From IMG/VR virus record IMGVR_UViG_3300006616_000032, positions 1 through 39,333 of that record: a stretch of DNA of 39,333 bases; one strand, given 5' to 3'. The notes under the pieces are model-generated. The model did not search any database. It was not told the DNA's origin and worked only from the letters and a program-made list of their open reading frames with translations. Source of the DNA: a virus. Each line of letters opens with the position of its first letter. Position 1 is the stretch's first letter. Shown here in pieces: positions 3,201 through 37,109 of the stretch. The position numbers and the translations under genes are program-made.

Positions 3201-6200
3201 ATAAACAAAATTACCTGTTTGAAAACCATTAACTCTATCAACAACTTGTTTTGCTTCTGCTTTTGAATAACCTTGATCCATTAGCTTTTGCATTGCTGTA
3301 ATACGATTTGTTGATGTTTCTACGGTTCCGCCCCATGCGTTTTCTAGCATAGCTGTTAAAGTTCTAGCTGTATCTTCATTTGTTATAGCAGCATCTTTAA
3401 TTTCATTGAACTTATTGGCTAGGGCTTGATTAAGTTGTTTTTCTTTTTTGTCACGCAAACCTTCTAAGGCCTCTTGTCTTTTTATTTGGAAAGACAACTT
3501 ATCATCAGGTGTTATATTATCAAGAGCTGCTTTAAAGTCTGCAACGTTTTCTTTGTTGTCTAATGTAAAGTCTGACTTTTCAAACTTACCTTTAATACCC
3601 AACTCAGCTGTATAACTAAATGATGCAGCTTTAGATGTTGAACCTCCTGGCTTTAACCTGAACCTTGCTACAACATTACCGTCAAACTTTTTAGAAGGTA
3701 TACCTTTTATAGGCTCTTTAAAATGGTACAACCCACTATCTCCTATCTGTATTAAGAAAGAAGATTTATCTGGCCCTTTACTAGTATAGTGATCAATAAC
3801 AGCATCTACGGGTATTTCGACCTCACCAACTAAATCTCTATAAGCAGGAAGTTTTAATATCTGTTGCCATGTTTCTGGCTGTATCTTAGTGCCAAATGGT
3901 ATTCCTGTTATTTTTTCATTTGCCTTAGGCTTGCCTGGTTTTTCAGGCTTTATTGTCCGACCTTCTATTTCATTTATCTTATCAAGTACTTGCTTAAAAG
4001 AATTACTATTAAGTCTTTCTTTAATAAACTGATCTATGACCTTACCGCCTGGATAATTATCAATATCAACGTCTTCTCTGTTCTCAACATATCTAACGTT
4101 GCCATCTTCAATTTTAACTGTAAATTGGCCAAGTCTATCGCCTTTACTTGATTTGTATTCAACATTCAATATTCTACCATCGGCAACCCTTACTTGCAAA
4201 TCAGGTACGGTTGAATCAAAACCACCTGATTGTACTTCTAACACATCAATACCAGCAGCCCTTAAAAATGCCTTTGATGCGTCTTCGTATATAATACCAC
4301 CATATGTTTTACCAACAAGGTCGCCCTTGTCATACATATCTTTCGCAAACTGAACAGCATAATTAGGTAACATAGCTTTTTCAACAAATTCATTGAAAGC
4401 GTCATTATCGTAGCCTTTGTTTTTTACGATATTATCTGCTATAGGTTTTACCATTTTAGCAAATGTATTTGCAGAACGAATGCGCTCACCAATCTCCATT
4501 GGGCTATACATTCTATCTGCAGACTCTTCTATAATTTGTTTACTTAAATTATTTATGTTAGCCTGTGCTTCTTGATTGCTACCTACAAATTCTTGCCAAG
4601 CTTTTTGTCCAAGACTATCGGCTATTCTTTCTGCAACTTTATCCTTGCGGCTATTTAAAGCATTGCGTCCTTTGGCTGTAGATAAATCTAAATCTTCGCC
4701 CATAATGTAATCCGCAAACTCTTTATTAGTTGGAGGTGTAATACTCCATGTTGCAATTGGTCCAGAACGCACTTTATTCAGCCCTGGTGCTGCCATATAT
4801 AATTCCTTAAGCGTATCTACATTTTTATAAACATAGTTCTTTAAAGCTTTTTGTTTCTCTAGTTGAGATCCTTTAGGCTTTAAAAAGCTTTTTATTTCAG
4901 GAGTTAAATATGTTTTAAAGAAATCTTTTTGTTGCTTAACATAGTCTTTAATGTTAGATATTTTGTCAAGCTTAAGATTAAATAGCTCTGCATTTGTTGC
5001 AGCTTTCTCAATAGCTGATTGTGGTATTGTTAATCTATCAGCTAATTCAGCAGAGGTTGGCCCAGAATCTTCAGCCATAATACCTCTAGCTTGTGTAATA
5101 TCTTTATCTGCTTTTTGTTTTGTATATTGTTTTATAATTCTATCACCACGCTTATCTAATAAGCTACCAACATATGCGGCTAAAGAATCATTTTTTTGTG
5201 GGTCATAAGTTTTTATTAAATCTAAGATACCACCTTTGCCGTACTTTAAGCCAGATAAAAAATCTTGATAAGTTCCTTTTTGTAAATCAGGAGCAACTAA
5301 CGACCATTTTCTTGTGGCAATGTTACCAGCTAAGCCGCCAAGCTTATCTGCAATTACAGTTGGATTAGCTTCAGTTTCATAAAGATCTTGAACTTCTTTA
5401 GATAGCTTTATACTTCTAGCAGATACAGGATCTTTGCGTTTGATATCAGTGTACTCTGGGTTTACAAATAGTTCTTCTTGTTTTTGTTTTAATTTACTAA
5501 TTTCTTGTTGGAATATAGCTTTAGACGAGTCATCATAGTTTTCGTCATTAAGCATGTCTTCATACATTGAAATATCTGCAGATACCTGAGTTAGTTCTTT
5601 AAGCTGCTCGTCTGACATATTAGCAAATTGGTTTTCTACCATTTTATTGCTATCTGCTAAAACTTGCTTCTTTTCTTTAATTTGCTTATTGATTATTTCT
5701 CTAGCTTCTTCTGATGTTGCGTTTTCTGCAGCATTCTCTAGGTCCATTATTTCAACGGCAGCTTGTTTTTGGGCATTAGATATTTGATTAGGTTGGGTTT
5801 GTTTTATAACCATTGTACGTTGCGGTGATGGGACAGCCATATTAACAGTACCACCCATTACAGCACCAACGAGAGAATTTCTAACAAAAGATCTACCAGC
5901 ACCATCCCAAGCATCTTCTCTACCTAAAATATAGTCGTCAGCAGCTCTTTCAATTGTGTCAGCAAGACCTTCAGAAAGACCTTCACCTCCTGCAGCTAAA
6001 GCTGTATTAGCTATATTGTTAAAAACGCCTTTAACACCTTTAGCCCCTGCTTTTCCAAAAACTTTAAACATACCTTTACCGATCATTGATGTTACCATTT
6101 CGGTAGCAAATTCACCGGCTCCAGTCACTGTTGCAGCTCCCCAAATAGATCCCATTGAATCGTCTTGGTTTTCATCTATAATTTCAGCAGACTTTGAGCC

Positions 6201-6860
6201 AACAGCAGATAGTCCCAAAGCAAACGCTCCCCCAGGAAGGAAAGCAGCTCCAATACTAGGTAAAGCACCGAATAAATCTTCCGTAAATGCTTTTGCTGCA
6301 TTTCCATAATCTCCTTCTTGAGCTAAATGAGTATAGTCCTTAGCAACCGCTTCGCCTGTTTCTTCGTCTACAATAGTCCCAAAATCTGTTCTTGCTGCTT
6401 GACCAAACTTCTCAACCTCCTCAATAACGTTTCTATCTATAAATTGATCAACGCCACCGGGCAAACCAGGCATTATTGATCTTAGGCTGTCTGTTATTGC
6501 TTTTTCACCTTCTCTGTCTAAATTGTTACCAGTGTAGTCATCAAATGTTTTTACAATGGTATCCATAAAATCATATTTAATACCTTTGTACAATGATGCA
6601 GCGCTACCTAAAACGTTTATGGCTTGTTTACCAAACCACCCAGTGTTTGTAATATTAGCTATGTTATCTAAAGCCGCCTTTCTTGCTTGTTGCTCTAAGG
6701 CTTCTTGTTCTTGGTTATATTGTTCTTCCATTTGATCTATTTGATATTGATCAAATGATATAGGACTATCGAATCCATCTGCTTCCACGTTTTCTGAGGG
6801 TGAAATATCTTTCGATTGTCCATTCTCCCACTCAGAAAAAGTCATTGTTTCGTCTTCCAT
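204..6860 (-). CDS. Giant internal/ejected virion protein with two zincin motifs and a PD-(D/E)XK-like motif
   Basis: At 2218 residues this is the last gene of the late series. Such proteins in podovirus-like phages are usually packed in the head and ejected with DNA; that role is inferred here. In order: a coiled-coil-like N-terminus (about 40-66); glycine-rich hydrophobic stretches (199-222, 328-342) that could cross membranes; a segment near 535-580 resembling sigma-70 region 2 (TYDP at 551-554); a PD-(D/E)XK-like motif (P886 D887, E901-Y-K903); a first zincin motif HEFGH (1233-1237) with a possible third ligand E1290; a long helical region; a hydrophobic patch near 1915-1935; an acidic Trp/Asp repeat (about 2087-2113); and a C-terminal HEKQH (2147-2151) with possible ligand E2198. 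The start ATG follows AATAAT, one base after the upstream stop. I found no DFDxD RNA polymerase motif, unlike the giant polymerases of gut crAss phages. Confidence 0.8.
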   Translation of the reverse strand: MEDETMTFSEWENGQSKDISPSENVEADGFDSPISFDQYQIDQMEEQYNQEQEALEQQARKAALDNIANITNTGWFGKQAINVLGSAASLYKGIKYDFMDTIVKTFDDYTGNNLDREGEKAITDSLRSIMPGLPGGVDQFIDRNVIEEVEKFGQAARTDFGTIVDEETGEAVAKDYTHLAQEGDYGNAAKAFTEDLFGALPSIGAAFLPGGAFALGLSAVGSKSAEIIDENQDDSMGSIWGAATVTGAGEFATEMVTSMIGKGMFKVFGKAGAKGVKGVFNNIANTALAAGGEGLSEGLADTIERAADDYILGREDAWDGAGRSFVRNSLVGAVMGGTVNMAVPSPQRTMVIKQTQPNQISNAQKQAAVEIMDLENAAENATSEEAREIINKQIKEKKQVLADSNKMVENQFANMSDEQLKELTQVSADISMYEDMLNDENYDDSSKAIFQQEISKLKQKQEELFVNPEYTDIKRKDPVSARSIKLSKEVQDLYETEANPTVIADKLGGLAGNIATRKWSLVAPDLQKGTYQDFLSGLKYGKGGILDLIKTYDPQKNDSLAAYVGSLLDKRGDRIIKQYTKQKADKDITQARGIMAEDSGPTSAELADRLTIPQSAIEKAATNAELFNLKLDKISNIKDYVKQQKDFFKTYLTPEIKSFLKPKGSQLEKQKALKNYVYKNVDTLKELYMAAPGLNKVRSGPIATWSITPPTNKEFADYIMGEDLDLSTAKGRNALNSRKDKVAERIADSLGQKAWQEFVGSNQEAQANINNLSKQIIEESADRMYSPMEIGERIRSANTFAKMVKPIADNIVKNKGYDNDAFNEFVEKAMLPNYAVQFAKDMYDKGDLVGKTYGGIIYEDASKAFLRAAGIDVLEVQSGGFDSTVPDLQVRVADGRILNVEYKSSKGDRLGQFTVKIEDGNVRYVENREDVDIDNYPGGKVIDQFIKERLNSNSFKQVLDKINEIEGRTIKPEKPGKPKANEKITGIPFGTKIQPETWQQILKLPAYRDLVGEVEIPVDAVIDHYTSKGPDKSSFLIQIGDSGLYHFKEPIKGIPSKKFDGNVVARFRLKPGGSTSKAASFSYTAELGIKGKFEKSDFTLDNKENVADFKAALDNITPDDKLSFQIKRQEALEGLRDKKEKQLNQALANKFNEIKDAAITNEDTARTLTAMLENAWGGTVETSTNRITAMQKLMDQGYSKAEAKQVVDRVNGFQTGNFVYINRTDANLDTPFHEFGHVWNKVVYSKSPRVFNAIFEKVKNEAPELYAEQVKRIKDSGYKFDENSFEFKDEVVAGVSGLNGAKVFKEVNQQQSWNDLLKQYWQILKDFLGITKMPDNKSLQDMTVEEVLDTMTAEVLSGKPGSRLSKLNPKSWLKSRIAKADPAFSVSQDKQFKGLQALKNEYRKSKDLQKAIQAGYDVVKDSYSLETWTDFVEQAVKEVDVNNSKTLYTAKGTWLASNEISLDNIKEAKELEFTEELNRKARNLIYSSKGKGKPTKWFIPPNAEDFRGLLYTLFPDGEAGKEAKEFYTKYILDPYHRGVQNANSEVVNKLKAIKEIISDLNVNEDIDGTPYTIGTAVKAYNWVRNGQDPLPNSKSSQKQAIIDRMIATVESNPRLVELADFLNENVDIKYSDRMLTESLGQTILTEVQKGVRTKNLETFSKNVDAIFDQTNLDQLEKQFGKKYVQSLRGTIKRMKTGRNRAGLDAQSNVFAKWLGRSVGSTMFVNRRSALLQTTSFINFIGKDNNNLFQATRAYASPEANAIFKKLWTSDYLVNRRTGAKFDVLADEIAGEENIIDKILNAGFWPTKMADSLAIAFGGTPFYINTRDALIKAGMSKKEAEAEALQQWIDAAEEVQQSSDPSKISEIQASTVGKIIYAFANTPFQYARYAKRKMQDITSGRSENIKRDVGSIFYYTVAQAAMFNALQSGLLALLMFGDEDDEEKIDELQLQAVERSLTGFAKSLGNPGAITAATYSVLKEAMQERTSGEKIALAATEISPPLNSKLRDLNSAYWAGKYDDYVGMAGKVGSFVGVPLDNMIAITNSFVGLFDDQLDVWQKIMLQLGYNEYEIAPDVAKAKRNQKKVKKDEWSDDDWADDKWSDDDWADDEWDTPVKKLERGVAGVANRDGSIEVDPNLSPVEREKTIAHEKQHVKDIDAGRLDYDDDYVYWNGSKHKRENGNIIYNGKAYIEGHKDLPWEKKAYAAEPSTQEIKKRKKLY
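541..600 (-). repeat. 30-bp tandem repeat inside the 2218-residue gene
   Basis: Two adjacent 30-bp units (541-570 and 571-600) share a core, AGCCCAATCGTCATCACTCC, and differ at only a few positions. They encode a repeated ten-residue acidic, Trp-containing unit of the WSDDDWADD type. This is a recent in-frame duplication in a linker just before the C-terminal peptidase-like domain. Confidence 0.85.
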
Positions 6861-10035: not shown

Positions 10036-10358
10036 TAAATAGAGGATTGAAACACCTCACTTGAGATAGAATATAATTCTGCACGATCGGTGCTTGTATT
10101 GATAATTGTAGTTGTTGCCTCATAACCAATAATACCAGATAATTCTGCTTCTGCTGGCTTTGAAAAAAAGATATAATTTCCTGCAGCCGGTGCTGCTACT
10201 TCCAAATCACGGTTTACATTGCATGATAATCTATCGTCTGCAACTGATGTGCATGGACCTAGTGTTACAATACTCGTGCCGTCTAAATAATAAACAATGT
10301 CCCCCGGAACGAGGGACACGTTTATCTTATTGTTAAATGTTAATGTTATTTCTTCCAT
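10035..10358 (-). CDS. Small beta-rich structural protein, 107 residues
   Basis: The predicted protein is beta-strand rich with no membrane segment. Its opening (LTFNNKINVSLVPGDIVYY) and its end, which mentions residues such as AELYSISSEVFQSS, resemble a small protein I have seen repeatedly in marine phage structural modules, always without a known function. Two cysteines (near residues 36 and 46, PCTSV and LSCNV) could pair. It overlaps the adhesin upstream by a single base (TAATG) and the GNAT-like gene downstream in the same way, so it is probably translated with them. A minor virion or neck part is likely. Confidence 0.5.
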   Translation of the reverse strand: MEEITLTFNNKINVSLVPGDIVYYLDGTSIVTLGPCTSVADDRLSCNVNRDLEVAAPAAGNYIFFSKPAEAELSGIIGYEATTTIINTSTDRAELYSISSEVFQSSI

Positions 10359-13300
10359 TAGCCTGCTGCTAAATTAACTGTTAATTCAATATAACCTCTT
10401 GCGTAAACACCTTGAGCAGGGTCCCATGATGTATTATCATAGTGTCTATTCGAAACACGTATTCTAATAGTTGCTGATTTAGCTGGTTGGCCAGTAGCAT
10501 TAGCTGCCACATTAAATATTACAGGATTTATATTATCTCTGAATACCCCAACTTCTTGCTGACCAGTAATAACCGCTCCAGATATTATATTATCAGGGTC
10601 GCTAGTTACTTCAACATGGTAACCCGGTATTGGATTATTCATATTAGTTGTTATAGGTAATGAAAAATTACCACCTGAGTTTGCTACATTTATTGTTTGG
10701 TTGTACGCGTTATTGTAGTTTGCAACTACCGTATGTGTAACACCATTAAATCTTATATAATCTGGTATACAAGCTTCACTGTATTCTGTAACAATTTCCC
10801 CGTTAGATTGATCTACTTCAATTATAGTACCGTTATCCATTTTCATAGAAACGTGCGGATAAGTACTATACTGAGCGTCAAATGCAGATGGAGTCCCCAC
10901 ATTGTAAGGTCCATTAGCAACAAAGTCACCAACCACAGGATAAGTTCCTGCTCCATTGTGATATAATGTTCTGGTGTAAGTTGTATTAGAGCATAATCGT
11001 TCTAGCCAATTATCATAAGCAAATCCCGCTGGGTAAATACTTAATTCTGAACTATTTGCTACAGAAAAAGATGTATCGTAGTTATAAAAAGTAACGTTAG
11101 GAGTTGCTGCGCTAATAGTTATAGGAATTATTTTAACGCCATCGTCTGATCTAAGTTCAAACCTTCTATTAGTTAATGAACCTGTCATAGGACTATTTTC
11201 AAATGTATGACCTAATATATATATAACTAGATTATCTCTATTCATTGATATATATCCCATTTCGTCTCCTGATGTCCACGAATTTTCTGTAGGTAAGCTA
11301 CTGTCGGCATTATGTATACTAGATCCTGTTTGACTAAAATACATATATTTGTTAGTAGGGTGTGAATCAAATAATGAGCGGTTCATAACAATTTCATTAT
11401 TGTTCAATGTATCTACTAATTTCCAGCCCACGTGAGAATATTCTAAACCTAACCTTGATAGGAATAAATTGTTACTATATCCCGGGTTATATGCATCTTC
11501 TGCTGATCTGTTTATGGTAATCGCACTAAAATAATTAGAGCCAGGACCGTTATAGTTAGCGCCAAGCGGGCTTAACGCGTCTACTGTCCCTGTGTGAAAA
11601 GGCCAGCTTTGCTGACTTCCGGTTCCACCTGCGTTTAAAAACTTAGCTGAAAATACACGCGCAAAATCTCTATCAGTTGTGTGAGTAGTGTTTTGGAAAG
11701 TAACAGTTATTGGCGTTCTTTGGTTTTCTACCGTATGTATCTTAAGAGTGGTTGACTCAAAATCGTTGTTGTAACGATATGGCCAAGCACCAATATAACT
11801 GTCACTAAATTCAACACGTATTGCATCATCATTGCTGTCACTGCTTGGATCAATAACCGCTCTAATAGCTGATCTACTAGAATCCGTTGTGTTATTATAT
11901 CCTAAATAATTACCAAATTCAGTATCACCTCCTCTAGTGTTTGTAAGCGCTGGAGATGTATGAGATGTTCCACCGGTTGTTCTTTGTGTAGCTGTTGTAC
12001 TTACAGTGTGAAACCAATTACCTGGACAACTAGACATTACGGTAGCACTCATAGGTGTTTCATTTCTGCCATCTAAACCATTTACTCCATTATTAGTTCC
12101 GTCGTTATAAACATAACTAGGGTCTAATCCATGCATATCAGTTAAACCTCCACTTTTAGCAGGGTACTGATTAAAGTCTCTTGCTATAGTAATTTCTTTA
12201 TATCCCATTGGATATATAAACTGAGGGTTAACTAAATTATTGTTAGGGTCTTGAAAGGTTGGTGATACACATACTAAGGCTGCGTCTGGTATGTTAGGGT
12301 CTATTTGATGCCATCCACTGTAAGTTGGATTTGCTAAAACTTCTGCTTTTGTACCTTGATAGTTGATATCTAAATTGCTAAAACCAGTAAATCCTTCTTT
12401 AAAATCTGCAGCTGTTATTGCGGACGATGAAACGGCTGTTGTTCCAGAATGCGCGTTAGTTACAACATACCCATTTAATGGGTGTTCCGTCCAAGTAGAC
12501 CTTGCGGATCTACTTTGAAGTACAGATGATTTATTACCAAAAGTTATCCATTCTTTAGGCCACCCTAAGTGGGTATCACTAAAATCTAATTGCGTAACAT
12601 CAGGAAGCCAGTAATAATTCCTAAAATACAAATAAGATTCAGGATTAGGGCATGTATTGGTTCTGCCTAGTCCTGATATATCTGGTCTCGAATTAGCGTC
12701 TAATGGATCAGATCCTGCTGCTATTTCAACTGTGTCTAAGTGTCCGTCATTATCATCGTCAGTATCAGCATTATTTCCAATACCATCCCCATCAGTATCT
12801 ACTGATTCATTTGGATCTAATGGGAATGCATCATCAGCATCAGGTACACCATCACCATCATCATCAAGGTCTGCATTATTTCCAACACCATCACCATCTG
12901 TATCCGTATCTTCTGTTGCATCTAATGGGAAAGCATCAGCGCCATCGTTAATTCCATCTCCATCTGAATCAGGGTTATCTGGATCAGTACCATCAGCAAC
13001 CTCTTGATCATTACTCACACCATCACCATCTCTATCTGGATCAACGCTATCTGCAATACCATCGCCATCTTGATCAGGAAAAGGTTGTATTAAGTTTACG
13101 GTTGTGCTTTCACTTGGGAATGAAACAGATGTTACTGTTAGCTGTCCTGTTATGTTAGCTATTCCGTTGTTTACTTGATTAGGGGTTACCGTTATTGTTG
13201 TTGTTCCATCAGGACCTGTTGTAGGTGTTGAATTAAACGCTGCAACTGTTCCAGGGTGAGATATAGTAACAACATCTCCATGAGAAATTAAACCTTGAAA

Positions 13301-16300
13301 ATTAAAGCCCATAATTGTTATAAGCTTTGGTGCACCGGTAGAAGGGTTAAACCCATCACCTTGTAATAGAGAAAGGTTGTTTGAAACCCGTGTAATACCA
13401 TTTATAGTTATAGTAACGTCAACATTATCATCTCTAAGAGCTGCATCTAAAGCATTAATTCTAGCTTGAAAACCTGCTAAACTTTGTTGTGTTACCGGAA
13501 AGTTTGGAGAGCCACTACCAATTACATCAAAATAGCTTGAACCTGTGTTTTGTAGAGCTGTTGTTACAGTAAAATTAAAATCGTTATAATTTGCAGGACT
13601 TGTTCCAGTTACTGTAGACGTAAACCCTCCACTACCTGTTAAACTGTTAACATAAACATCCATAGTTGTTGATGCAGTAGTAGTGTCAAACGTGTGTGAA
13701 CTTTTAGTTGTAGTAGTTCCTGTATTATAAACATTAAGTGTAACCGGTATACTATTGCTATCTAAAGGATCACTTCCAAAACTAATTTCATCACTATCAC
13801 TATATCCGTCGCCGTCATCATCAGTATCAGCATTGTTTCCTATCCCATCTCCATCGGTGTCGGTGTCTTCGTTCGGATCAAGTGGGAAAGCATCTGCGCC
13901 GTCATTAGTTCCGTCATCATCAGAATCTGCATCTAATGGATCAGTGCCGTCTGTAGCTTCATCGGTATCAGAAACGCCGTCTCCATCATCATCCGTATCG
14001 GTATTATCACCTGTTCCGTCTCCATCTGTATCTGTATCCTCAGTAGCATCCAGTGGGAAATCATCATCCGCATCTAATACACCATCGCCGTCGTCATCAG
14101 TGTCAGCATTATCGCCTGTACCGTCTCCGTCTGTGTCAGTGTCTTCAGTAGGGTCTAACGGGAATGCATCATCTCCGTCATCTACCCCGTCATCATCACT
14201 GTCAGCATCAAGTGGGTCGGTGCCATCAGCTGCTTCATCAGTGTCGCTAACTCCGTCACCGTCATCATCTGTATCGGTATTGTCGCCAGTACCGTCACCA
14301 TCCGTATCTGTATCTTCATTTGGATCAAGCGGGAAATCGTCGTCACCATCATCTACAGTATCATCATCTGTATCCGAATCTAGAGGGTCAGTTCCATCAG
14401 TTGCTTCATCACTATCAGATACCCCATCACCGTCGTCATCGGTATCAGCGTTATCCCCTGTACCATCCCCATCGGTGTCGGTATCCTCTGTACCATCTAA
14501 CGGGAAATCATCATCAACGTCGGGAACACCATCACCATCATCGTCTGTATCAGCGTTGTCTCCAACTCCATCACTATCTGTATCAGTGTCCTCTGTGTCG
14601 TCTAGTGGAAAATCATCTTCTGTATCCGGTACGCCATCTCCATCGTCGTCAGTGTCAGCGTTGTCACCAGTTCCATCTCCATCAGTATCAGTATCTTCAT
14701 TGCCGTCTAAAGGAAAGTCATCATCAGCATCTGGTACACCGTCGCCATCATCGTCCGTGTCGGTATTATCACCAACCCCGTCACCATCTGTGTCAACAGG
14801 AGTATCATCTGCGTCTAGCGGATCAGTATCTTCGTTTCCTTCATCTGTATCACTCCAGCCGTCGCCGTCATCGTCGGTGTCTGTATCATCAGGGATTCCA
14901 TCACCATCGGTGTCTAAGAAAGAATCTCCAGCAATATTTACATCAATATTACCATCATTGTTAGGAATTGTACCAGTAATATTTCCGTTAAGTTGTGTGT
15001 GTGGTGCATTCCCAACAGCCGAAGGCCCAGAAACAACACCACCTCCAACAGTAGCTACTAAAACTAAATGTGGAACTTTAAATATATTAGATGTTTCTGC
15101 AGTTAAAGTATATGGTTTAGTAAATGATCTTCCAGCTATATCTGTTATAGTGGTTAAATCATTTATAGTCATAGAGGTTTGCACATTGTTAGCACCTCTA
15201 AAATTATTACCTGTATTAAAGTCTAAATCTACAATCTTTTTAGCGCCGCCTGTTGGTGTAAAATTATAAACGGCAGGTGCGCTTCCATAATTACCTTGCA
15301 ATGTCCATGCTACTGTTATTGTAGATATAGCTGTTCCGGTAAACGAAGCCCCTTGTAAACTAGATATCGTAGGTGTTACTGTTACAGATGCAATATTGTT
15401 TTGCGAATGTCCTGATGCTATAAAACTAGAAGTTGTTATATTTAAATCAGTATCGTGCCATGTAAACCCCGCATTTGCCGTTAATGTAACACTAAGCTCA
15501 GTTCCTGAAACAAGCGATCCAGATGCACCTGAATAAACTATTTGGTAATCATCAACAGTATAATTAGCCCCATCACTAAAGTTTAATATTACAGCTGGTT
15601 CGGAGTATGCTACACTAGCTACTAAAGGTATTTCATATAGAGCATCGTCATTTTGAAAAACACCTTCAGAATATTCTAAAAATAAAGATAAATTACCGTT
15701 TGGTAACTTTATTGCTTTGCCACGACAAAAATCAACGCCTGGATCCGCACTTGTTCTCAATAGTATTTCGGCACCCTCTACTAGTTTAACTTCGTTAGCG
15801 GCAACTTCTGCCGCGGTACCATTTAAAGTCCATGTCCCTCCAGAAGGTGGTGGTACCTCAATGTTTATAATACCTCCGTTGCTTTTACTTCCTTCTGTTT
15901 TAGGGCCTAATAGCACGTTGTATTTCCAATCTGCTCCAATTGTTGCTCCACCTTCAAGGGGTTGAGGTACATTAGAATCTGGACAAACAAAGCTTATTGT
16001 TATTTTACTTTGGTTTTTTGATTTTATTGGATCAGGTAAATCAGTAATATCTACTGGGTTTGTATTATCATCTTCGTCAAAATCAAAATTCCACACAATA
16101 TCGTCAACATCGTCAGGTGTGTCGGGTGTACATATTGCATTACCAACATTTTCATCACCCGCTGCACTTGGTATTCTAACGACTTTTTTAAACTTACCCT
16201 CAGAATCTAAGGTTAATGTTCCTGATATTGTACTGTATGTTGTTGTTGAGCTTGCTGGTTCAACCGTAGGCGTTAATGAGAACGTCCCAGACGCACCCGG

Positions 16301-17056
16301 ATCTCCTCCGGCTGTAATTAATATAAATCCACCGTTTAAGCCGTCTAAACCGCTTGTATCAACTCTTATCCATTCAATATCTTTACTATCAACTGGTGAT
16401 TGATTAGTTGGTACAGTGTCGCCAACTTCGGTTATATCACCTGTTGTTACTGTATTGTTCTGTCCGTTAGTATCATCCGTGGGTATTGTTACTATAATAT
16501 CAAAAGCCCACCCATCATCACTTAAAACACCGTCACCTAAAGAATACGGGTGAGGTAGCTCAATATCTGGTTCAATTGGCCCATTGTCGTCTTCGGGTAG
16601 TTCTTGTCCGTCACCTGTTGTAATTATAACAACACCAACAGTATTAGTATCACCTGGCTCACCGTCAGTATCTATATTTAAGACACCATCGCTAGATACA
16701 TTGCCGTCATCATCTGTGACTATAAACTCGTATCCATCTTCTGTATCGTCATCAAAATCTAAATCACCATTAAAATGTATTACTGATGATCTTGCGTCTC
16801 CGGATATATCAATATCCATATCAAAATCTTCGTCAGTAAATACTATGGTGTTAATTAAATCAAACGTAATTCTAACATTAGCTCCTTGCTGTACTATGAC
16901 TATGTTTTCAAAATTAATTGTATCAACAATTGAAAAATCTGTAGCAACAAGTCTATAGCCTGATTTAGGTGATAGTGTTAACGTCACTGTCTGGGTACCG
17001 GCGGTTGTTCCGACAGTACCCGTTATGCTATTTACAGTGTAAGTATAGTTAGCCAT
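10358..17056 (-). CDS. Giant adhesin / receptor-binding protein with thrombospondin type 3 calcium repeats
   Basis: This 2232-residue protein is the largest in the window. The N-terminal 700 residues are beta-rich, Ig-like or fibronectin-like modules. Residues about 713-1100 hold nine copies of a DTDDDGDG-centred unit of the thrombospondin type 3 family (Asp-rich, calcium-binding), separated by FPLD linkers. A beta-rich spacer follows, then a second shorter repeat block (about 1327-1456), then a unique C-terminal domain of about 770 residues with many aromatic residues that may bind the receptor. The repeats would form a calcium-stiffened rod. Its place directly after the muzzle gene, one base away, supports a tail role. 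No signal peptide is present, as expected for a virion protein. Host flavobacterial adhesins use the same repeats, so an origin by transfer from a host is possible. Confidence 0.75.
12691..13077 (-). repeat. Thrombospondin type 3 repeat block 2
   Basis: About three Asp-rich calcium-binding units (DQDGDG, DSDGDG, DTDGDG and similar) lie in the adhesin gene, C-terminal to a beta-rich spacer. One unit departs from consensus (DTDDDNDG). On the plus strand the tract is a run of CATCACCATCATC-like triplets. Confidence 0.85.
13757..14918 (-). repeat. Thrombospondin type 3 repeat block 1, nine major units
   Basis: Nine units centred on DTDDDGDG, each about 35-45 residues with its linker (for example DDFPLD or DGTDPLD), are almost identical in protein. 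They differ widely at third codon positions, so the DNA is less repetitive than the protein. Confidence 0.9.
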
Positions 17057-30994: not shown

Positions 30995-31254
30995 TATTTA
31001 GCTCGGCCCTCCGCGCCGAAAAACGTATCAGCTTTTGACTTTGGTTTATCTTCCATCATTGAGTTAATTTGCTCAACTCTTTCAAGCAGTGCCATAGCGT
31101 CTTCCATAGCTAATCTGTAAGCCGAAGCTGAAATTTTAACTTTCTCAGGATCTAGTTCTTCTGGATCCATCTTCTTGTTCATTACCTTAATCAATTCGTT
31201 GATTGAATTTTCAGCAGCATCAAGAATAAGTTTGCGTTTTTTCTTTATGTCCAT
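30994..31254 (-). CDS. Small helical protein before terL; possible small terminase
   Basis: The 86 residues are almost entirely helical and charged (KKKRKLILDAAENSINELI at 4-22, then a second helix near 40-68). There is no recognisable DNA-binding motif. Position directly upstream of terL, with the stop overlapping the terL start, is where a small terminase subunit is usually found, and small helical oligomers fit that role. This is inference from place and size only. The gene starts 35 bases inside the end of the GroES-like gene, an overlap in a different frame; a later in-frame ATG is not convincing because the first helix would be lost. Confidence 0.5.
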   Translation of the reverse strand: MDIKKKRKLILDAAENSINELIKVMNKKMDPEELDPEKVKISASAYRLAMEDAMALLERVEQINSMMEDKPKSKADTFFGAEGRAK

Positions 31255-31807
31255 AGTTGATAGTTATTTCTTTGGATAAAATTCTATATAGTTTTTTATC
31301 ATCTATGTTAAACTCATATTCTGAGTCTGGGGTAAAGCCCACCAGATCGCCACAGGACAACCCTAATGAGTCTAAGTATTCATTAGTATATGTAAGCTTA
31401 CCTATAAGTTTTTTCTCGGTTTCTAAGCTCCATATGTCGTCGTTTTCAACGGGCTCTACAAAACAATATTCGCTAAGACAACGCCATTCTGTGCCGTTGT
31501 GTATAGCAAATACCGAATCCGCATCAACCATATATAAATTTTCATCTATATAGTTAGCAGAGTTTCTTTCATTACCGCGTACATCATACCATCTTCTAAA
31601 TACATTATGATGTACTATTGCTTTGTCGCCTGATTTTGCAATTGTTTTAATATTAATAGGAACGTTAACTATTGTGCCTACACGGTTTACAAAATGATAA
31701 TCTCGTTCTGTTACTTCGCTGTTTAATATTAATTCGTTACCATCGACATCAACTTTATTGTTGTACCGATCTTCAGTGGATATAATATAATTGTAAAGTG
31801 ATTTCAT
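31220..31807 (-). CDS. Tandem GroES-like beta-barrel protein
   Basis: The 195-residue protein appears to hold two GroES-like units. In the first (about 5-103) a strand and loop lead to GTIVNVP (44-50), then SGDKAIVHHN (59-68) and a closing ADSVFAIHNG. In the second (about 113-186) YCFVEPVEND opens the barrel and LSCGDLVGFTPDSEYEFNI (150-168) followed by LYRILSKEITI matches the end of co-chaperonin 10 proteins, where GDxVxF, a mobile charged strand and a final dI strand are diagnostic. T4 gp31 is a known phage GroES substitute needed for capsid folding, so a role in folding the capsid protein with host GroEL is plausible. Whether the mobile GroEL-binding loop is kept cannot be decided. It could also be a structural beta-barrel. 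Confidence 0.6.
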   Translation of the reverse strand: MKSLYNYIISTEDRYNNKVDVDGNELILNSEVTERDYHFVNRVGTIVNVPINIKTIAKSGDKAIVHHNVFRRWYDVRGNERNSANYIDENLYMVDADSVFAIHNGTEWRCLSEYCFVEPVENDDIWSLETEKKLIGKLTYTNEYLDSLGLSCGDLVGFTPDSEYEFNIDDKKLYRILSKEITINYGHKEKTQTYS

Positions 31808-32852: not shown

Positions 32853-33265
32853 TTGTGTTTGTTGTTGCCCATGATTTTCTCAGCACCTCGCGATCCGAAA
32901 TATCCGATGAAAACCAGTTGTAATAATTCTTTAACAGTAGATAGCTCTTCAAGCTGCAATCCCCATCCTATAACAAAAGCTATTGTTAAAAAAGCTAATG
33001 TTAATGGACGAACATTTGCAGCGAGCCAACTACCAGATCTTGAGTCTGCAACCCATCTTCTGGTTATACCGTCAAATTCGTGTATCTCTTGTTCTAATTT
33101 CTTTAACGCAATATCTTTGTCTTCCGCTGGCATATCAGATCCACCAATAATAGCTTTTATGATTCCGCCAACAGGAGTGTCATCAGCAATTGCGCCTACG
33201 ACACCTGGAATTTTTTGTAATAAAAATTTTCCAACATCAGTGTCCTTGAATTTCTTTTTTCCCAT
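32849..33265 (-). CDS. Holin-like protein, GTA_holin_3TM type
   Basis: The 138 residues contain SGSWLAANVRPLTL (77-90), which is the signature I associate with the three-helix holin family first described in gene transfer agents. Hydrophobic segments lie at about 20-40, 86-103 and 112-124. The middle helix is charged (MPAEDKDIALKKLEQEI), and the C-terminus is basic and faces the cytoplasm by the positive-inside rule. It would form membrane lesions that let the peptidase reach the wall. It overlaps the end of the glycosyltransferase-like gene by 29 bases and the 53-residue gene by ATGA. Confidence 0.8.
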   Translation of the reverse strand: MGKKKFKDTDVGKFLLQKIPGVVGAIADDTPVGGIIKAIIGGSDMPAEDKDIALKKLEQEIHEFDGITRRWVADSRSGSWLAANVRPLTLAFLTIAFVIGWGLQLEELSTVKELLQLVFIGYFGSRGAEKIMGNNKHK

Positions 33266-34151
33266 CTTTCTTTTCTACTATAAACCAGTTGTTACGTTTG
33301 CTTTTGTATTCTAATATATAATCTAAGTATTTATCAATTTTCTTTTTCCAATCTCTATCAAGAACAGGATTAATAATACCACTTTTATATGAAGAGAATA
33401 CTCTATCAATTACTGTTGGGTCATCTTGATAATCAAACATAACTTTGTTTATATTAAAGAATGATCCTTCATGTAAATGATTGTATACGTCAACAGGTTC
33501 GATTTCTTTCCCAAGCGCCACGGCATATGATGCGGTTTCGCTCATGTGAGTTGTAAATACTTTATTCGCTTTTTGTAAGTAATAATACATATCAATATCG
33601 CGGGGTAAAACACTATCTTCCCCAAAGAAATCTTTTAGTTCACCAATAACCGCGTGTGTTGTTAATGGATGTGGTTTAAAATAAACATCATCTAAATATT
33701 TATCTTTTATCCAACGCAGTTTATTTAAGCAAACATGTGATTTAATTTTGTTTGACCCAGGAAGAACCACTAAATATTTTCTAGCAGGATATTTATCAAA
33801 AGTCTTTTTGCGATGTTGGTATTTGTTTACCATGTCGTTTTCAACGTAATCACGTAAAGCTTGTGCATATCCTGTTGCATATTCTGTATGGTCATTCAAA
33901 GCATCAGTAATCATTCTCGTACGAATATCAAAACTCAAAGGTTGGAATATAAAGTGATTAGCATATTCCGTGTACCCCATTGTCCAGAAGTCGTAAGGCT
34001 CGTCTGCTATAACGTCATACGAAGCATCAAGCCCAACCTCTTTTATTCTTTTTAAAGCGTATTTTTCAACTTGCTTTAATACGTTTAAACTTTTACTTTT
34101 CTTTAAACTCCCAATTCTTTCTCTAAGAGTTTTTTGGTCAAACATTTCCAT
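33237..34151 (-). CDS. Glycosyltransferase-like protein (GT-B C-terminal half features)
   Basis: This 304-residue soluble protein has an alternating beta-alpha pattern. VVLPGS lies in its middle, then YFKPHPLTTH (KPHP at 159-162), then a VFTTHMSETASYAVALGKE stretch (about 199-217). In the capsule polysaccharide, polysialyl and CDP-glycerol phosphotransferase-type families the KxHP loop and a Ser/Thr-Glu before a helix bind the nucleotide-sugar donor. This is only a motif resemblance. An N-terminal acceptor domain would be short. It might modify virion fibres, whose stalk genes lie directly upstream and are rich in Ser and Thr, or the host surface; both are inference. It could also be a phage protein with only the fold. 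No signal peptide or membrane segment is present. Confidence 0.5.
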   Translation of the reverse strand: MEMFDQKTLRERIGSLKKSKSLNVLKQVEKYALKRIKEVGLDASYDVIADEPYDFWTMGYTEYANHFIFQPLSFDIRTRMITDALNDHTEYATGYAQALRDYVENDMVNKYQHRKKTFDKYPARKYLVVLPGSNKIKSHVCLNKLRWIKDKYLDDVYFKPHPLTTHAVIGELKDFFGEDSVLPRDIDMYYYLQKANKVFTTHMSETASYAVALGKEIEPVDVYNHLHEGSFFNINKVMFDYQDDPTVIDRVFSSYKSGIINPVLDRDWKKKIDKYLDYILEYKSKRNNWFIVEKKDGKKEIQGH

Positions 34152-34160
34152 ATAATATAA

Positions 34161-35591
34161 TTAAAGTGTGAATCTTTTAAATCTTTGATCTGTTTCGTCT
34201 CCCCATATTATTTCTGTTCCGTTATTAATAACACAAGGAGCTCCAGGCCTACCGCTTGCAGTAGCAGATGAATATGTTTTAGCGCTGGCTAAATCATTAC
34301 CTGTTGCAAAGTTTATTTTATAAACATTAGGGGTTCCTGTCAAGGCAACACCTATATATTGTGTACCATCATAATTCATATGACCACCGTATGATCTTAT
34401 ATCTGAAACACCTACTGTTGATGGGGTTATTGTTAAAGATTGCTCTTGTGTGACTGTACTTGTTATATCGTAAGCTGTAGACAAAGAAAACTTGGTTAAA
34501 GTACCTGTTGTTTGACCTGAATACCCAAAAGTGTACATTGTATAACCTTCATTAGTAAAGTTAATACCATATGTTGTTACTGGTGCTACTAAAGATTTTT
34601 CATTTGTTCTTGTGCTTAAATCCCAAGCTGTGGTTAAATCGTAAGTATATATATAATTTGAACTAGTTACAGCAATTGCCATAAAAGTTCCATCTTTATA
34701 AAACTTAACATCCCCAGCGTATGCTTGTGGTGGATCCCACGAGTTATAAGCTGAACCAACACTATCTATGTCATAAGGCGTAGATAAATCCCACTGTCTC
34801 ATCGTATTGCTAGAGTACTCCATGATGTGCACAAGTTTTGTACCATCTTCACTCATTGCAATACCTGATCTAATATAAGTACCTAAGCCAATTACATAAC
34901 TATCTTGTTGTGTCAGTGTCCCTGATAAATCAGCAACTGTCCAATCGTGTTCTACATCCGGTGTATACGGTTGCTTGTAGAATGTTGTTTGAAACTGCTG
35001 CGGTAATGTAGTTGTTACTTGGTATGGTGTTAAATTTGTAATGCGCTCCATTGGAACAAGCGTTGCCGTCTGCTGACTTGTTTGGAACGTTGTTGTCCAG
35101 CTAGTAGTCGTATTATGACTAGTAGCAAGCATTGTGTTAGTATATAACGTTGTTGTCCACGACGTTGTTGTTGATCTCGATGTACTCCACGAAGACGCTG
35201 TATTAAACGTAGTTACGTGTGATGTGTTTTGAGAATACGTGGTATTCCAAGTTGTTGTATAATTTGTTGTCCAGCTTGTTGTCCAAGAAGTGTTTTCCGT
35301 CCAACTTGTAGTTGTGCTGTTACTATATGCTGTATTCGCGTTCCAACTTGTGGTCGTGCTAATAGCAACTGCTGTGGATACGTTCCAGCTTGTGGTATAA
35401 TATCCTGTTTTTGTCGTACTTACCGTCCATGATGTTGTATAAGACGTTGTATGACTTGTAGTTCTTGATCCGCTAGCTGACGTGGTTTTTGATGTACTCC
35501 ATGTGGTAGACGTAATATGCGACGTCTGCCAAGATGTAAGCTGTACCCCACTAGTGTTAAAGTAGGTATACCAATAAGTTGTCCATGACAT
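34161..35591 (-). CDS. Tail fibre: Ser/Thr/Trp stalk plus probable beta-propeller head
   Basis: Residues 1 to about 180 are low-complexity and nearly free of charge, made of TTSW, TTTW and NTS units spaced roughly 8-16 residues apart. Residues about 215-476 carry at least four repeats of a YDLTTAWDL-like motif (WDLSTPYDI, YDLTTAWDL, FSLSTAYDI, INFATGNDL), each after a two-strand segment. That pattern is typical of a blade-repeat beta-propeller as seen in marine phage appendage proteins. The stalk resembles that of the gene directly upstream, which points to duplication followed by exchange of the C-terminal head. The most likely role is host-binding fibre or spike. The start ATG is preceded by AATTAGTAGAT, without a Shine-Dalgarno sequence. 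Confidence 0.65.
   Translation of the reverse strand: MSWTTYWYTYFNTSGVQLTSWQTSHITSTTWSTSKTTSASGSRTTSHTTSYTTSWTVSTTKTGYYTTSWNVSTAVAISTTTSWNANTAYSNSTTTSWTENTSWTTSWTTNYTTTWNTTYSQNTSHVTTFNTASSWSTSRSTTTSWTTTLYTNTMLATSHNTTTSWTTTFQTSQQTATLVPMERITNLTPYQVTTTLPQQFQTTFYKQPYTPDVEHDWTVADLSGTLTQQDSYVIGLGTYIRSGIAMSEDGTKLVHIMEYSSNTMRQWDLSTPYDIDSVGSAYNSWDPPQAYAGDVKFYKDGTFMAIAVTSSNYIYTYDLTTAWDLSTRTNEKSLVAPVTTYGINFTNEGYTMYTFGYSGQTTGTLTKFSLSTAYDITSTVTQEQSLTITPSTVGVSDIRSYGGHMNYDGTQYIGVALTGTPNVYKINFATGNDLASAKTYSSATASGRPGAPCVINNGTEIIWGDETDQRFKRFTL
35052..35591 (-). repeat. Degenerate Ser/Thr/Trp stalk repeat (propeller fibre)
   Basis: About 180 residues consist of short units such as TTSW, TTTW and TTSY with spacers of Asn, Ser, Ala or Tyr. 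At DNA level the plus strand shows a run of GTTGTNCA-like words. The units are not exact copies. Confidence 0.8.
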
Positions 35592-35602
35592 ATCTACTAA
35601 TT

Positions 35603-36754
35603 TTAATTACTATTTTGTAAATGATTGTGGGTTAATATTCCGTTACAGAAAAAAGTATCGTTATCTTCTGTGTCTATATCGTAAACAGTGAAATAACCGT
35701 CTTCTTCTGTTATACTAGTTATCAAAACTTCTTGATTGTTTTGATTTAAAAAAGAATCACCTTCTCTAAGTATATATAAAGGCAAAACCCTCCACATATT
35801 TAATTCCTTTTTCTTTGCTATACACATATGGTCTGCGGTAGCTCTAAACAGATTGTGATTAACGTTTATTATGTTATCGCGAATCGCTGGGGTACAATGT
35901 ATAACTGTAGCTGGCCTTGTATTTAAAGATGAAATTTCATACGCCTCAAATTCATGTAAAGCTATATGATCTTGCGTATTAAAGCTACCGTTTTTTGACA
36001 AAACTTGCATTCCAGGTTGTAAGTCATCTACTAGTATACTTGTACCATCTGCTAAAGCTATTAATTGGTTGCTTGCAACGCATTGAAATTCACCAGGATC
36101 AAAACCGCCGCTACCTGTTGTTGATCTACTCGTAAACCTAGATGTTTGATGTGAAACATATGTTGACGCAGAAGTATTATAATACGTAGAATACGGGCCA
36201 CCTGTAGTAAAAGTGGTTGTCCAACTTGTGGTAAACGACGTACTATATGAAGTCGTTTTTGATGTCGTTCTAGAATAAGTTGTGTTAGCTTGATATTGAT
36301 AGCTAGTAGTTCGCGAATAGCCTGTATTCCTGTAACTATAAGTAGTCGTTGATCTAGAATAAGCCGTGCTCACAGAGTAAGAAGTTGTCGTAGAGCGACT
36401 ATAAGTCGTAGCTTGCGATGTTGTTCTTGATGTTGTCTTTGACGTGGTTCTTGATGTAGAAACTTGCCAGCTTGTTGTATAACTCGTTGTTCGACTTGTT
36501 GCCCAAGTTGAAGATGTTGTAAACGTCGTGGTTGTACTTCTTGATACAGTGTATGAAGTAGCAACAACTGTTTTTAATGTATTGTATGTAGTAGAAGTAG
36601 ATTGAGATGTTACTCTTGATGTATTCCAAGAAGTAGTTGTATTTCTCGAGGAATTCCAAGATGTCGTCTGGGTAGGTGTTGTCGTAAACGTAGTTGTTAC
36701 GTTTGGCCCGTTTGTATTAAAAACGAATAATCTTTGAAATCCTATTTGCTTCAT
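35603..36754 (-). CDS. Tail fibre stalk with C-terminal Hint (intein-like) self-processing domain
   Basis: Residues about 17-216 form a Ser/Thr/Tyr/Arg-rich low-complexity stalk with many TTS, YSRST and TSY units. A Hint domain begins at C225, in CVASNQLIALADGTSILVDD: this fits block A of inteins and hedgehog-type autoprocessing domains, with a Cys followed by an xLADGxxxxVDDLxxGMxV pattern. Block B is ATADHM (T306, H309). Block F is VYDIDTEDNDTFFCNGI and block G is THN (T375, H376, N377). Only six residues (HLQNSN) follow the Asn. The first of these is His, not Cys, Ser or Thr, so normal protein splicing is unlikely; cleavage at either end, as in bacterial intein-like (BIL) domains, is possible. 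It neighbours the propeller fibre and has a related stalk. Confidence 0.85.
   Translation of the reverse strand: MKQIGFQRLFVFNTNGPNVTTTFTTTPTQTTSWNSSRNTTTSWNTSRVTSQSTSTTYNTLKTVVATSYTVSRSTTTTFTTSSTWATSRTTSYTTSWQVSTSRTTSKTTSRTTSQATTYSRSTTTSYSVSTAYSRSTTTYSYRNTGYSRTTSYQYQANTTYSRTTSKTTSYSTSFTTSWTTTFTTGGPYSTYYNTSASTYVSHQTSRFTSRSTTGSGGFDPGEFQCVASNQLIALADGTSILVDDLQPGMQVLSKNGSFNTQDHIALHEFEAYEISSLNTRPATVIHCTPAIRDNIINVNHNLFRATADHMCIAKKKELNMWRVLPLYILREGDSFLNQNNQEVLITSITEEDGYFTVYDIDTEDNDTFFCNGILTHNHLQNSN
36107..36706 (-). repeat. Degenerate Ser/Thr/Tyr stalk repeat (Hint fibre)
   Basis: About 200 residues of short TTS, RSTTT, YSRTTS and TSWxTS units carry periodic aromatic or arginine residues and no acidic residues. 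The plus-strand DNA is a run of GTTGTNGA/GTCGT-like words. The stalk of the propeller fibre (34161-35591) has the same style with more Trp and less Arg. Confidence 0.8.
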
Positions 36755-36755
36755 G

Positions 36756-37109
36756 TTAACTAAAATTACCTATATAATTCACTAATACGTTTGATGTGTC
36801 AACAATAAAATAAGATATAATTGCTAAGTCTCCTGAATCTGTTTGCCATACAACTAAATCACCATTTGGTGTTTTCATTATTGCTGGCAATGCTGCAGGA
36901 ACTGTAGCCGCTGTGTTTTTAATTATAATGTTACCAGCTTGGCCAATTTGATCAGCGTCGACAGTAACAGCTATAGAATAACTTCCAGATGCTTCTAATA
37001 TAAAGTTTAGATTATCTGCAAAATCTATGTTAAATACATTACTTGCATCTTTAGTCACCGTTGTCGGCGCTACAGATGTCATAGTAACTGGTACTCTTGT
37101 TAATGCCAT
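36756..37109 (-). CDS. Small tail-fibre/appendage protein, 117 residues
   Basis: Beta-rich, with the opening MALTRVPV, a middle that reads DADQIGQAGNIIIKN (about 53-67) and an end that reads VLVNYIGNFS. This combination is one I have seen in short fibre proteins of marine podoviruses, in the C-terminal beta-sandwich. No catalytic motif and no membrane segment are present. It ends one base before the Hint fibre begins and starts one base after the 116-residue gene. The N-terminus resembles that neighbour (MALTKIS), so both may share a small anchoring segment. Confidence 0.6.
   Translation of the reverse strand: MALTRVPVTMTSVAPTTVTKDASNVFNIDFADNLNFILEASGSYSIAVTVDADQIGQAGNIIIKNTAATVPAALPAIMKTPNGDLVVWQTDSGDLAIISYFIVDTSNVLVNYIGNFS

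What the first reader, a model, noticed from the sequence alone, without database searches (positions are those of the whole stretch)
35603..36754. Fibre-like protein ending in a complete Hint (intein-like) domain
Seen: a low-complexity Ser/Thr/Tyr stalk, then C225 in a block A pattern, T306/H309 in block B, a block F-like VYDIDTEDNDTFF and a terminal His-Asn, with only six residues after. Known: Hint domains make a thioester at the first Cys and cleave after the final Asn; the His in place of a +1 nucleophile resembles bacterial intein-like domains. Inference: the stalk is cleaved, or joined to a nucleophile of another virion protein, during assembly. A self-processing adhesin stalk would be a new way to mature or cross-link phage fibres.
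Basis: partly seen in the sequence, partly recalled or inferred. Interest (0 to 1): 0.8.

Follow-up and report, generated by a model that had tools for sequence, protein, structure and literature searches.

The report
Phage fibre stalk with self-processing cap
A virus that probably infects flavobacteria makes a threonine/serine-rich fibre stalk that ends in an intact intein-like (Hint) domain, one case of a widespread and apparently undescribed habit of capping phage fibre proteins with what looks like a self-cutting domain; the cutting itself has not been tested.

Summary
ORF 35603-36754 on the minus strand (383 aa) is a Thr/Ser-rich stalk followed by a Hint domain with C225, T306/H309, a block F, H376-N377 and only HLQNSN after it. 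Family models are weak but consistent. An AlphaFold model (pLDDT 86) matches bacterial-intein-like (BIL) domains best, ahead of inteins and Hedgehog. A strict block F-G pattern in IMG/VR returned 54 stretches, all 54 in-frame phage Hint proteins. Cys and TxxH, which the pattern did not select, are present in 52/52 complete copies, and the +1 residue is never Cys/Ser/Thr. In freshwater phages and Erwinia/Dickeya/Yersinia jumbo phages the Hint likewise ends a repetitive or collagen-like fibre protein. Marine T4-like phages carry it inside one. In the window virus's relatives the same locus has paired Thr-rich stalks beside a GT-B-like gene. There stalk 1 ends instead in an S74 self-cleaving chaperone, or in a GG-Cys-rich tail followed by a methyltransferase fused to half a Hint lacking His-Asn. 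Best reading: an A-type BIL-like domain that cuts itself off the stalk during fibre maturation. The fold and conserved active site are shown computationally; cleavage, timing and any cross-linking are inferred.

The parts
35603..36754 (-). Stalk 1-Hint protein, 383 aa, ATG to stop
   Evidence: starts right after the upstream gene and ends 11 nt before stalk 2, so a tight operon
36104..36700 (-). Thr/Ser/Tyr-rich repeat stalk, residues 19-217
   Evidence: composition and autocorrelation peaks at 4 and 14 residues
35624..36082 (-). Hint domain, C225 to N377 (block A C225; block B T306/H309; block F 357-369; block G H376-N377)
35606..35623 (-). Six-residue tail HLQNSN after N377; +1 residue is His
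34161..35591 (-). Stalk 2, 476 aa: similar Thr/Ser/Trp-rich repeats and a C-terminal repeat domain (propeller-like by eye) related to fibre proteins of Roseobacter and Lentibacter phages
   Evidence: no Pfam match
33237..34151 (-). 304-aa protein, weakly GT-B-like (glycosyltransferase/epimerase fold); relatives sit directly 3' of Thr-rich stalk genes
36756..37109 (-). 117-aa upstream gene; its homologue also lies just 5' of stalk 1 in relative L170, marking stalk 1 as positionally equivalent

Best explanation
The protein is a fibre stalk whose C-terminal cap is an A-type BIL-like Hint domain. After folding, C225 attacks the preceding peptide bond to form a thioester between the stalk and the Hint. 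The thioester is then resolved by water or an available amine, releasing the Hint and leaving a mature stalk end. N377, helped by H376, can cyclise and cut off the short tail. Because the +1 residue is His, canonical Cys/Ser/Thr splicing is not expected. The cap is thus a removable, self-processing end piece, used at the place where a relative uses an S74-type chaperone. Shown computationally: fold, intact catalytic residues, recurrence and placement on fibre proteins. Inferred: that cleavage occurs, its timing, and the benefit to the virion.
For: AF2 model with pLDDT 85.9; best PDB matches are BIL domains (6y75 E 4e-11; 2lwy TM 0.85, rmsd 2.2), then inteins, then Hedgehog. Cys and TxxH present in 52/52 complete IMG/VR copies, positions not selected by the search pattern. 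+1 is K46, F3, A2, Y2, I1, never C/S/T, which is the stated difference of BILs from inteins, and type A BILs keep the terminal His-Asn (PMC4031507). The C-terminal-cap layout recurs on unrelated stalks: YYAAP and SPVGV repeats and collagen-like stalks of cultured jumbo phages. In the marine T4-like group median dN/dS is 0.26 in the Hint against 0.42 and 0.34 in its flanks. Relatives replace the stalk-1 cap by an S74 domain (L167, PF13884 E 5e-4, just below cut-off) or a GG-Cys-rich tail.
Against: No biochemical or virion mass data were found. Pfam Hint models are below their gathering scores. Half-Hints without His-Asn in close relatives and a huge-phage copy with S..Q in place of T..H show that the fold can persist without the full active site. 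The marine T4-like copies have about 100 residues after the Hint, so they are not terminal caps. The dN/dS pairs share ancestry.
Confidence: 0.6

Rival explanations
1. Transfer rather than release: the C225 thioester is attacked by an amine or other nucleophile of another molecule, so the stalk end becomes covalently joined to a neighbouring fibre subunit, another virion protein or a cell-surface group.
For: Type A BILs can ligate through a free amine without a nucleophilic side chain (PMC4031507). A second stalk protein is encoded next door. The acceptor-free, Hedgehog-like placement at a chain end suits transfer.
Against: No conserved acceptor identified. In type A BILs cleavage products dominate (PMC4031507).
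Confidence: 0.15
2. Excision: the Hint cuts at both ends and the stalk is rejoined to the short tail, or in the marine T4-like proteins to the C-terminal Fn3-like domain (BIL splicing without a +1 nucleophile).
For: His-Asn is conserved. The +1 Lys and following Gly are kept in 42 T4-like copies. Tails after HN are similar across the jumbo phages.
Against: For the window copy the product would be only a six-residue extension. The tail is not conserved between groups.
Confidence: 0.12
3. An inactive Hint kept only as a folded cap or assembly nucleus of the stalk.
For: Catalytically incomplete half-Hints and a block B variant exist in related phages.
Against: The window copy and 52/52 complete IMG/VR copies keep Cys and TxxH; representatives are 23-29% identical to the window Hint.
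Confidence: 0.1
4. A selfish mini-intein or a polymorphic-toxin-type Hint that frees a C-terminal effector.
For: Same fold; PT-HINT and Intein_splicing are among the weak Pfam hits.
Against: No homing endonuclease domain, no conserved host gene, nothing after the Hint but six residues, no +1 nucleophile. No cellular relative of the motif found in 84,980 genomes.
Confidence: 0.03

Closest known systems
A-type bacterial intein-like (BIL) domains, e.g. C. thermocellum BIL (2lwy)
   Same: Hint fold, N-terminal Cys, TxxH block B, terminal His-Asn, no +1 nucleophile, in variable, poorly conserved proteins
   Different: Here the domain ends a phage fibre stalk six residues from the C-terminus; block F has Asp in the ID.E.ND motif
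Class 1 (mini-)inteins
   Same: Fold and all N/C catalytic blocks
   Different: No C-extein of any size, no +1 Cys/Ser/Thr, no conserved host protein, no homing endonuclease
Hedgehog (Hog) autoprocessing domain
   Same: A C-terminal Hint that activates the preceding chain through a thioester
   Different: Terminal His-Asn kept; no sterol-recognition region; structurally a weaker match (1at0 E 2e-6 against 4e-11 for BIL)
Peptidase S74 / endosialidase intramolecular chaperone
   Same: Self-cleaving C-terminal domain of phage fibres; found at the equivalent place on stalk 1 of a relative (L167)
   Different: Unrelated fold and chemistry
phrog_38766 fibre proteins of Erwinia/Dickeya/Yersinia jumbo phages; intein-domain fibre proteins of phage NCTB
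   Same: Fibre protein ending in a Hint with C, TxxH, D, HN plus 3-10 residues
   Different: Collagen-like or other stalks, about 20% identical Hint, myovirus context

Membership tests
A-type BIL domain | Hint fold | tested here: met
   AF2 pLDDT 85.9; Foldseek best hits are BIL domains
A-type BIL domain | N-terminal nucleophile and block B TxxH | tested here: met
   C225, T306, H309
A-type BIL domain | C-terminal His-Asn | tested here: met
   H376-N377
A-type BIL domain | No +1 Cys/Ser/Thr | tested here: met
   +1 is H378; relatives K/F/A/Y/I
A-type BIL domain | Located in variable, non-conserved proteins | tested here: met
   None of 80 terminase-matched relatives carries it; fibre region swapped
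A-type BIL domain | Autocleavage at N and/or C end | not testable with these tools
   needs protein expression
Class 1 intein | +1 Cys/Ser/Thr | tested here: not met
   H378
Class 1 intein | Inserted in a conserved host protein with a C-extein | tested here: not met
   six residues only after N377
Peptidase S74 | S74 domain | tested here: not met
   no S74 hit in the window protein; present on relative L167 just below cut-off
Polymorphic-toxin PT-HINT | Toxin domain after the Hint | tested here: not met
   six-residue tail

The most novel reading that the evidence does not exclude
Phages use Hint domains as interchangeable processing caps for repetitive fibre stalks, both in cis and in trans. 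In relatives of the window virus, stalk 1 ends in a GG-Cys-rich tail (GGGGGGC.RGC or GGCFRNC) exactly when the next gene is a methyltransferase fused to half a Hint (12 of 12 loci, against 0 of 3 with other tails; about three related clusters in the 12). The half-Hint protein would act on the stalk's terminal Cys as a naturally split system that caps or links the stalk end.
Probability: 0.13. Interest if true: 0.85.

Novelty: new variant of a known kind. Interest (0 to 1): 0.6.

Why it matters
If the cap cleaves, phages have a second, chemically different self-processing end for fibres besides S74 domains, spread over freshwater, marine and jumbo phages with unrelated stalks. A thioester-forming stalk tip could leave a defined end or a covalent link, which would bear on how very long low-complexity fibres are finished. 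Cultured phages with the same layout (Erwinia, Dickeya, Yersinia jumbo phages) make it directly testable by virion mass spectrometry. The members tested of this ID.E.ND Hint clade score below the Pfam gathering cut-offs, so routine annotation will often miss them.

Tried and rejected
Close relatives of the window Hint in IMG/VR: none. Hint or stalk in 80 terminase-matched relatives: none, which showed the fibre region is variable. Cellular relatives with the ID.E.ND motif: two genome scans, none confirmed. Relatives of stalk 2's C-terminal domain in IMG/VR: none; found in Roseobacter/Lentibacter phages. Defence-system models: none. Toxin and selfish-intein readings rejected on anatomy. Frame-broken C-extein considered and rejected: stalk 2 is in another frame, and short tails are found in other phages too. 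Literature searches found no description of Hint-capped phage fibre stalks, only inteins in terminase, RNR and similar genes; subscription papers and preprints were not searchable. A1 against A3 profile comparison is not independent evidence because both hold the window sequence. Published virion mass data for the jumbo phages: not found.

Full report
What is there. The window is a 39,333-base IMG/VR virus record. Its structural genes run on the minus strand: terminase, portal, capsid-type protein. The terminase is 63% identical to an environmental phage and about 45% to Flavobacterium phages, so a Bacteroidota host is likely (inference). ORF 35603-36754 (-) encodes 383 aa: a short N-terminus, a stalk of 37% Thr, 23% Ser and 9% Tyr (residues 19-217), a Gly-containing linker, and a Hint domain from C225 to N377 followed by HLQNSN. 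The plus strand is closed. The gene sits in a tight operon between a 117-aa gene and a second Thr/Ser/Trp-rich stalk gene, followed by a 304-aa gene and the lysis genes.

Is the Hint real? Sequence models are weak but consistent: TIGR01443 above its cut-off; PF14890 E 5e-4, below cut-off; phmmer hits to solved BIL and intein chains at E about 0.007. The AlphaFold model from 16 window and IMG/VR sequences has pLDDT 85.9. Its best solved matches are the Tetrahymena BIL2 domain (E 4e-11) and the C. thermocellum BIL (TM 0.85, rmsd 2.2), then inteins, then Hedgehog. Among predicted viral structures the top entries include proteins of 1304, 153 and 506 residues, lengths that match the three NCTB intein-domain proteins; that identification is an inference. 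Others in the list are annotated as Hint, Fn3 or PASTA proteins of uncultured phages.

How widespread. tblastn finds the same kind of domain at the C-terminus of three NCTB proteins and of collagen-stalk fibre proteins in many Erwinia, Dickeya and Yersinia jumbo phages. A search from these found freshwater-type phages in which long YYAAP or SPVGV repeat stalks end in Gly-Cys-Hint-HN plus 3-9 residues ('freshwater' is inferred from gene content). A strict DNA pattern for ID.E.ND.[FY]...HN in IMG/VR matched 54 stretches, and all 54 are in-frame Hint proteins. Block F-G identity is by construction. The Cys and TxxH, present in 52 of 52 complete copies, were not selected for. The +1 residue is K, F, A, Y or I, never C, S or T (the tally's 8 'G' entries are a one-residue offset before Cys). 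Most of these copies (T4-like, next to tail sheath genes) carry the Hint inside the protein, before an Fn3-like domain, so the terminal layout is one of two. Within that group median dN/dS is 0.26 for the Hint against 0.42 and 0.34 for the flanks; these are non-independent pairs and only show that the Hint is at least as constrained as its flanks. Two scans of 84,980 bacterial and archaeal genomes with the motif gave no confirmed relative.

The locus in relatives. None of 80 terminase-matched relatives shows the Hint or the stalk, and the nearest one with DNA there has a LamG-type fibre instead. Searching with the 304-aa neighbour opened a second view: 33 relatives, in viruses with about 68% identical terminase. 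In 28 of 28 loci with DNA upstream, the neighbour lies directly 3' of a Thr/Ser-rich repeat stalk, and often two stalks are present. Stalk 1 ends in one of three ways. In L167 it ends in an S74-type self-cleaving chaperone (PF13884 E 5e-4, just under the cut-off). In 12 loci it ends in a GG-Cys-rich tail, and there the next gene is a methyltransferase-like protein whose C-terminal part matches the second half of the Hint (hhalign probability 98.7, E 2.7e-16) but lacks block A and His-Asn. In L170 and L185 it ends in a Gly-rich tail followed by methyltransferase-like genes without the Hint part. The Cys-tail/half-Hint link is therefore 12 of 12 against 0 of 3, but the 12 fall into about three related clusters, so it is a lead and not a proof. 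The L170 homologue of the window's 117-aa gene sits just before stalk 1, so the window's stalk 1-Hint is in the equivalent place.

Glycosyltransferase neighbours. The 304-aa protein has a modest model (pLDDT 72) whose best matches are GT-B-fold enzymes such as UDP-GlcNAc 2-epimerase and TagF, with low TM-scores. A GlcNAc transferase (PF11397 in L089) lies just 3' of the Hint gene in 9 freshwater-type loci. A conserved 330-aa gene, sugar-transferase-like by eye but without a Pfam hit, lies next to it in 36 loci, among them the huge phage L157. Glycosylated stalks are a fair guess, not a result; the background rate of such neighbours was not measured.

Mechanism. From established Hint chemistry and the review in PMC4031507, the intact A, B, F and G blocks without a +1 nucleophile predict thioester formation at C225 and Asn cyclisation at N377, with cleavage favoured over splicing. 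The position at a stalk end, with a self-cleaving S74 domain at the same place in a relative, makes maturation cleavage the best explanation. Transfer to an acceptor, excision with rejoining, and an inactive cap remain open, as listed. L157's S..Q block B and the half-Hints show that not every phage Hint is catalytically complete.

Verdict. Observation confirmed; interpretation partly supported. It fits A-type BIL domains on every sequence and structure feature testable here; the activity that also defines them was not testable. It is a new variant by its use as a fibre-stalk cap. No published account of this use was found in the open-access literature searched.

Noticed in passing
window 33237-34151; L159-L189: A 304-aa GT-B-like gene is found directly 3' of giant Thr/Ser-rich repeat stalks (up to 1390 aa or more) in 28 of 28 related loci with upstream DNA, suggesting stalk glycosylation.
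   Followed up: partly
L161, L163-L165, L171-L189 (e.g. L172:1470-2522): Methyltransferase-like protein fused to a half Hint without block A or His-Asn, sitting between stalk 1 (ending in a GG-Cys-rich tail) and stalk 2.
   Followed up: partly
L103, L116, L139 and about 40 other marine loci: T4-like phage fibre-type proteins with an internal Hint (LC...HN-KG) before an Fn3-like domain, +1 Lys fully conserved, next to a conserved possible sugar-transferase gene and the tail sheath gene.
   Followed up: partly
L157:3182-4480: A 484-kb uncultured phage has a C-terminal Hint with S..Q in block B instead of T..H but with Cys and His-Asn kept, beside the same gene type as in the T4-like loci.
   Followed up: partly
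window 10358-17056: 2232-aa protein with long runs of DTDGDGxxDxxD repeats, like thrombospondin type 3 calcium-binding repeats.
   Followed up: no
window 204-6860: 2218-aa protein with two HExxH-type motifs (HEFGHVWN and AHEKQHVKD); the C-terminal one resembles a separate 102-aa protein in relative L027 (4895-5203).
   Followed up: no
window 31220-31807; L027:287-2087: 195-aa gene matched to a GroES family (PHROG, E 7e-26) before the terminase; related contig L027 carries a GroEL-like gene followed by an 86-aa GroES-like gene.
   Followed up: no
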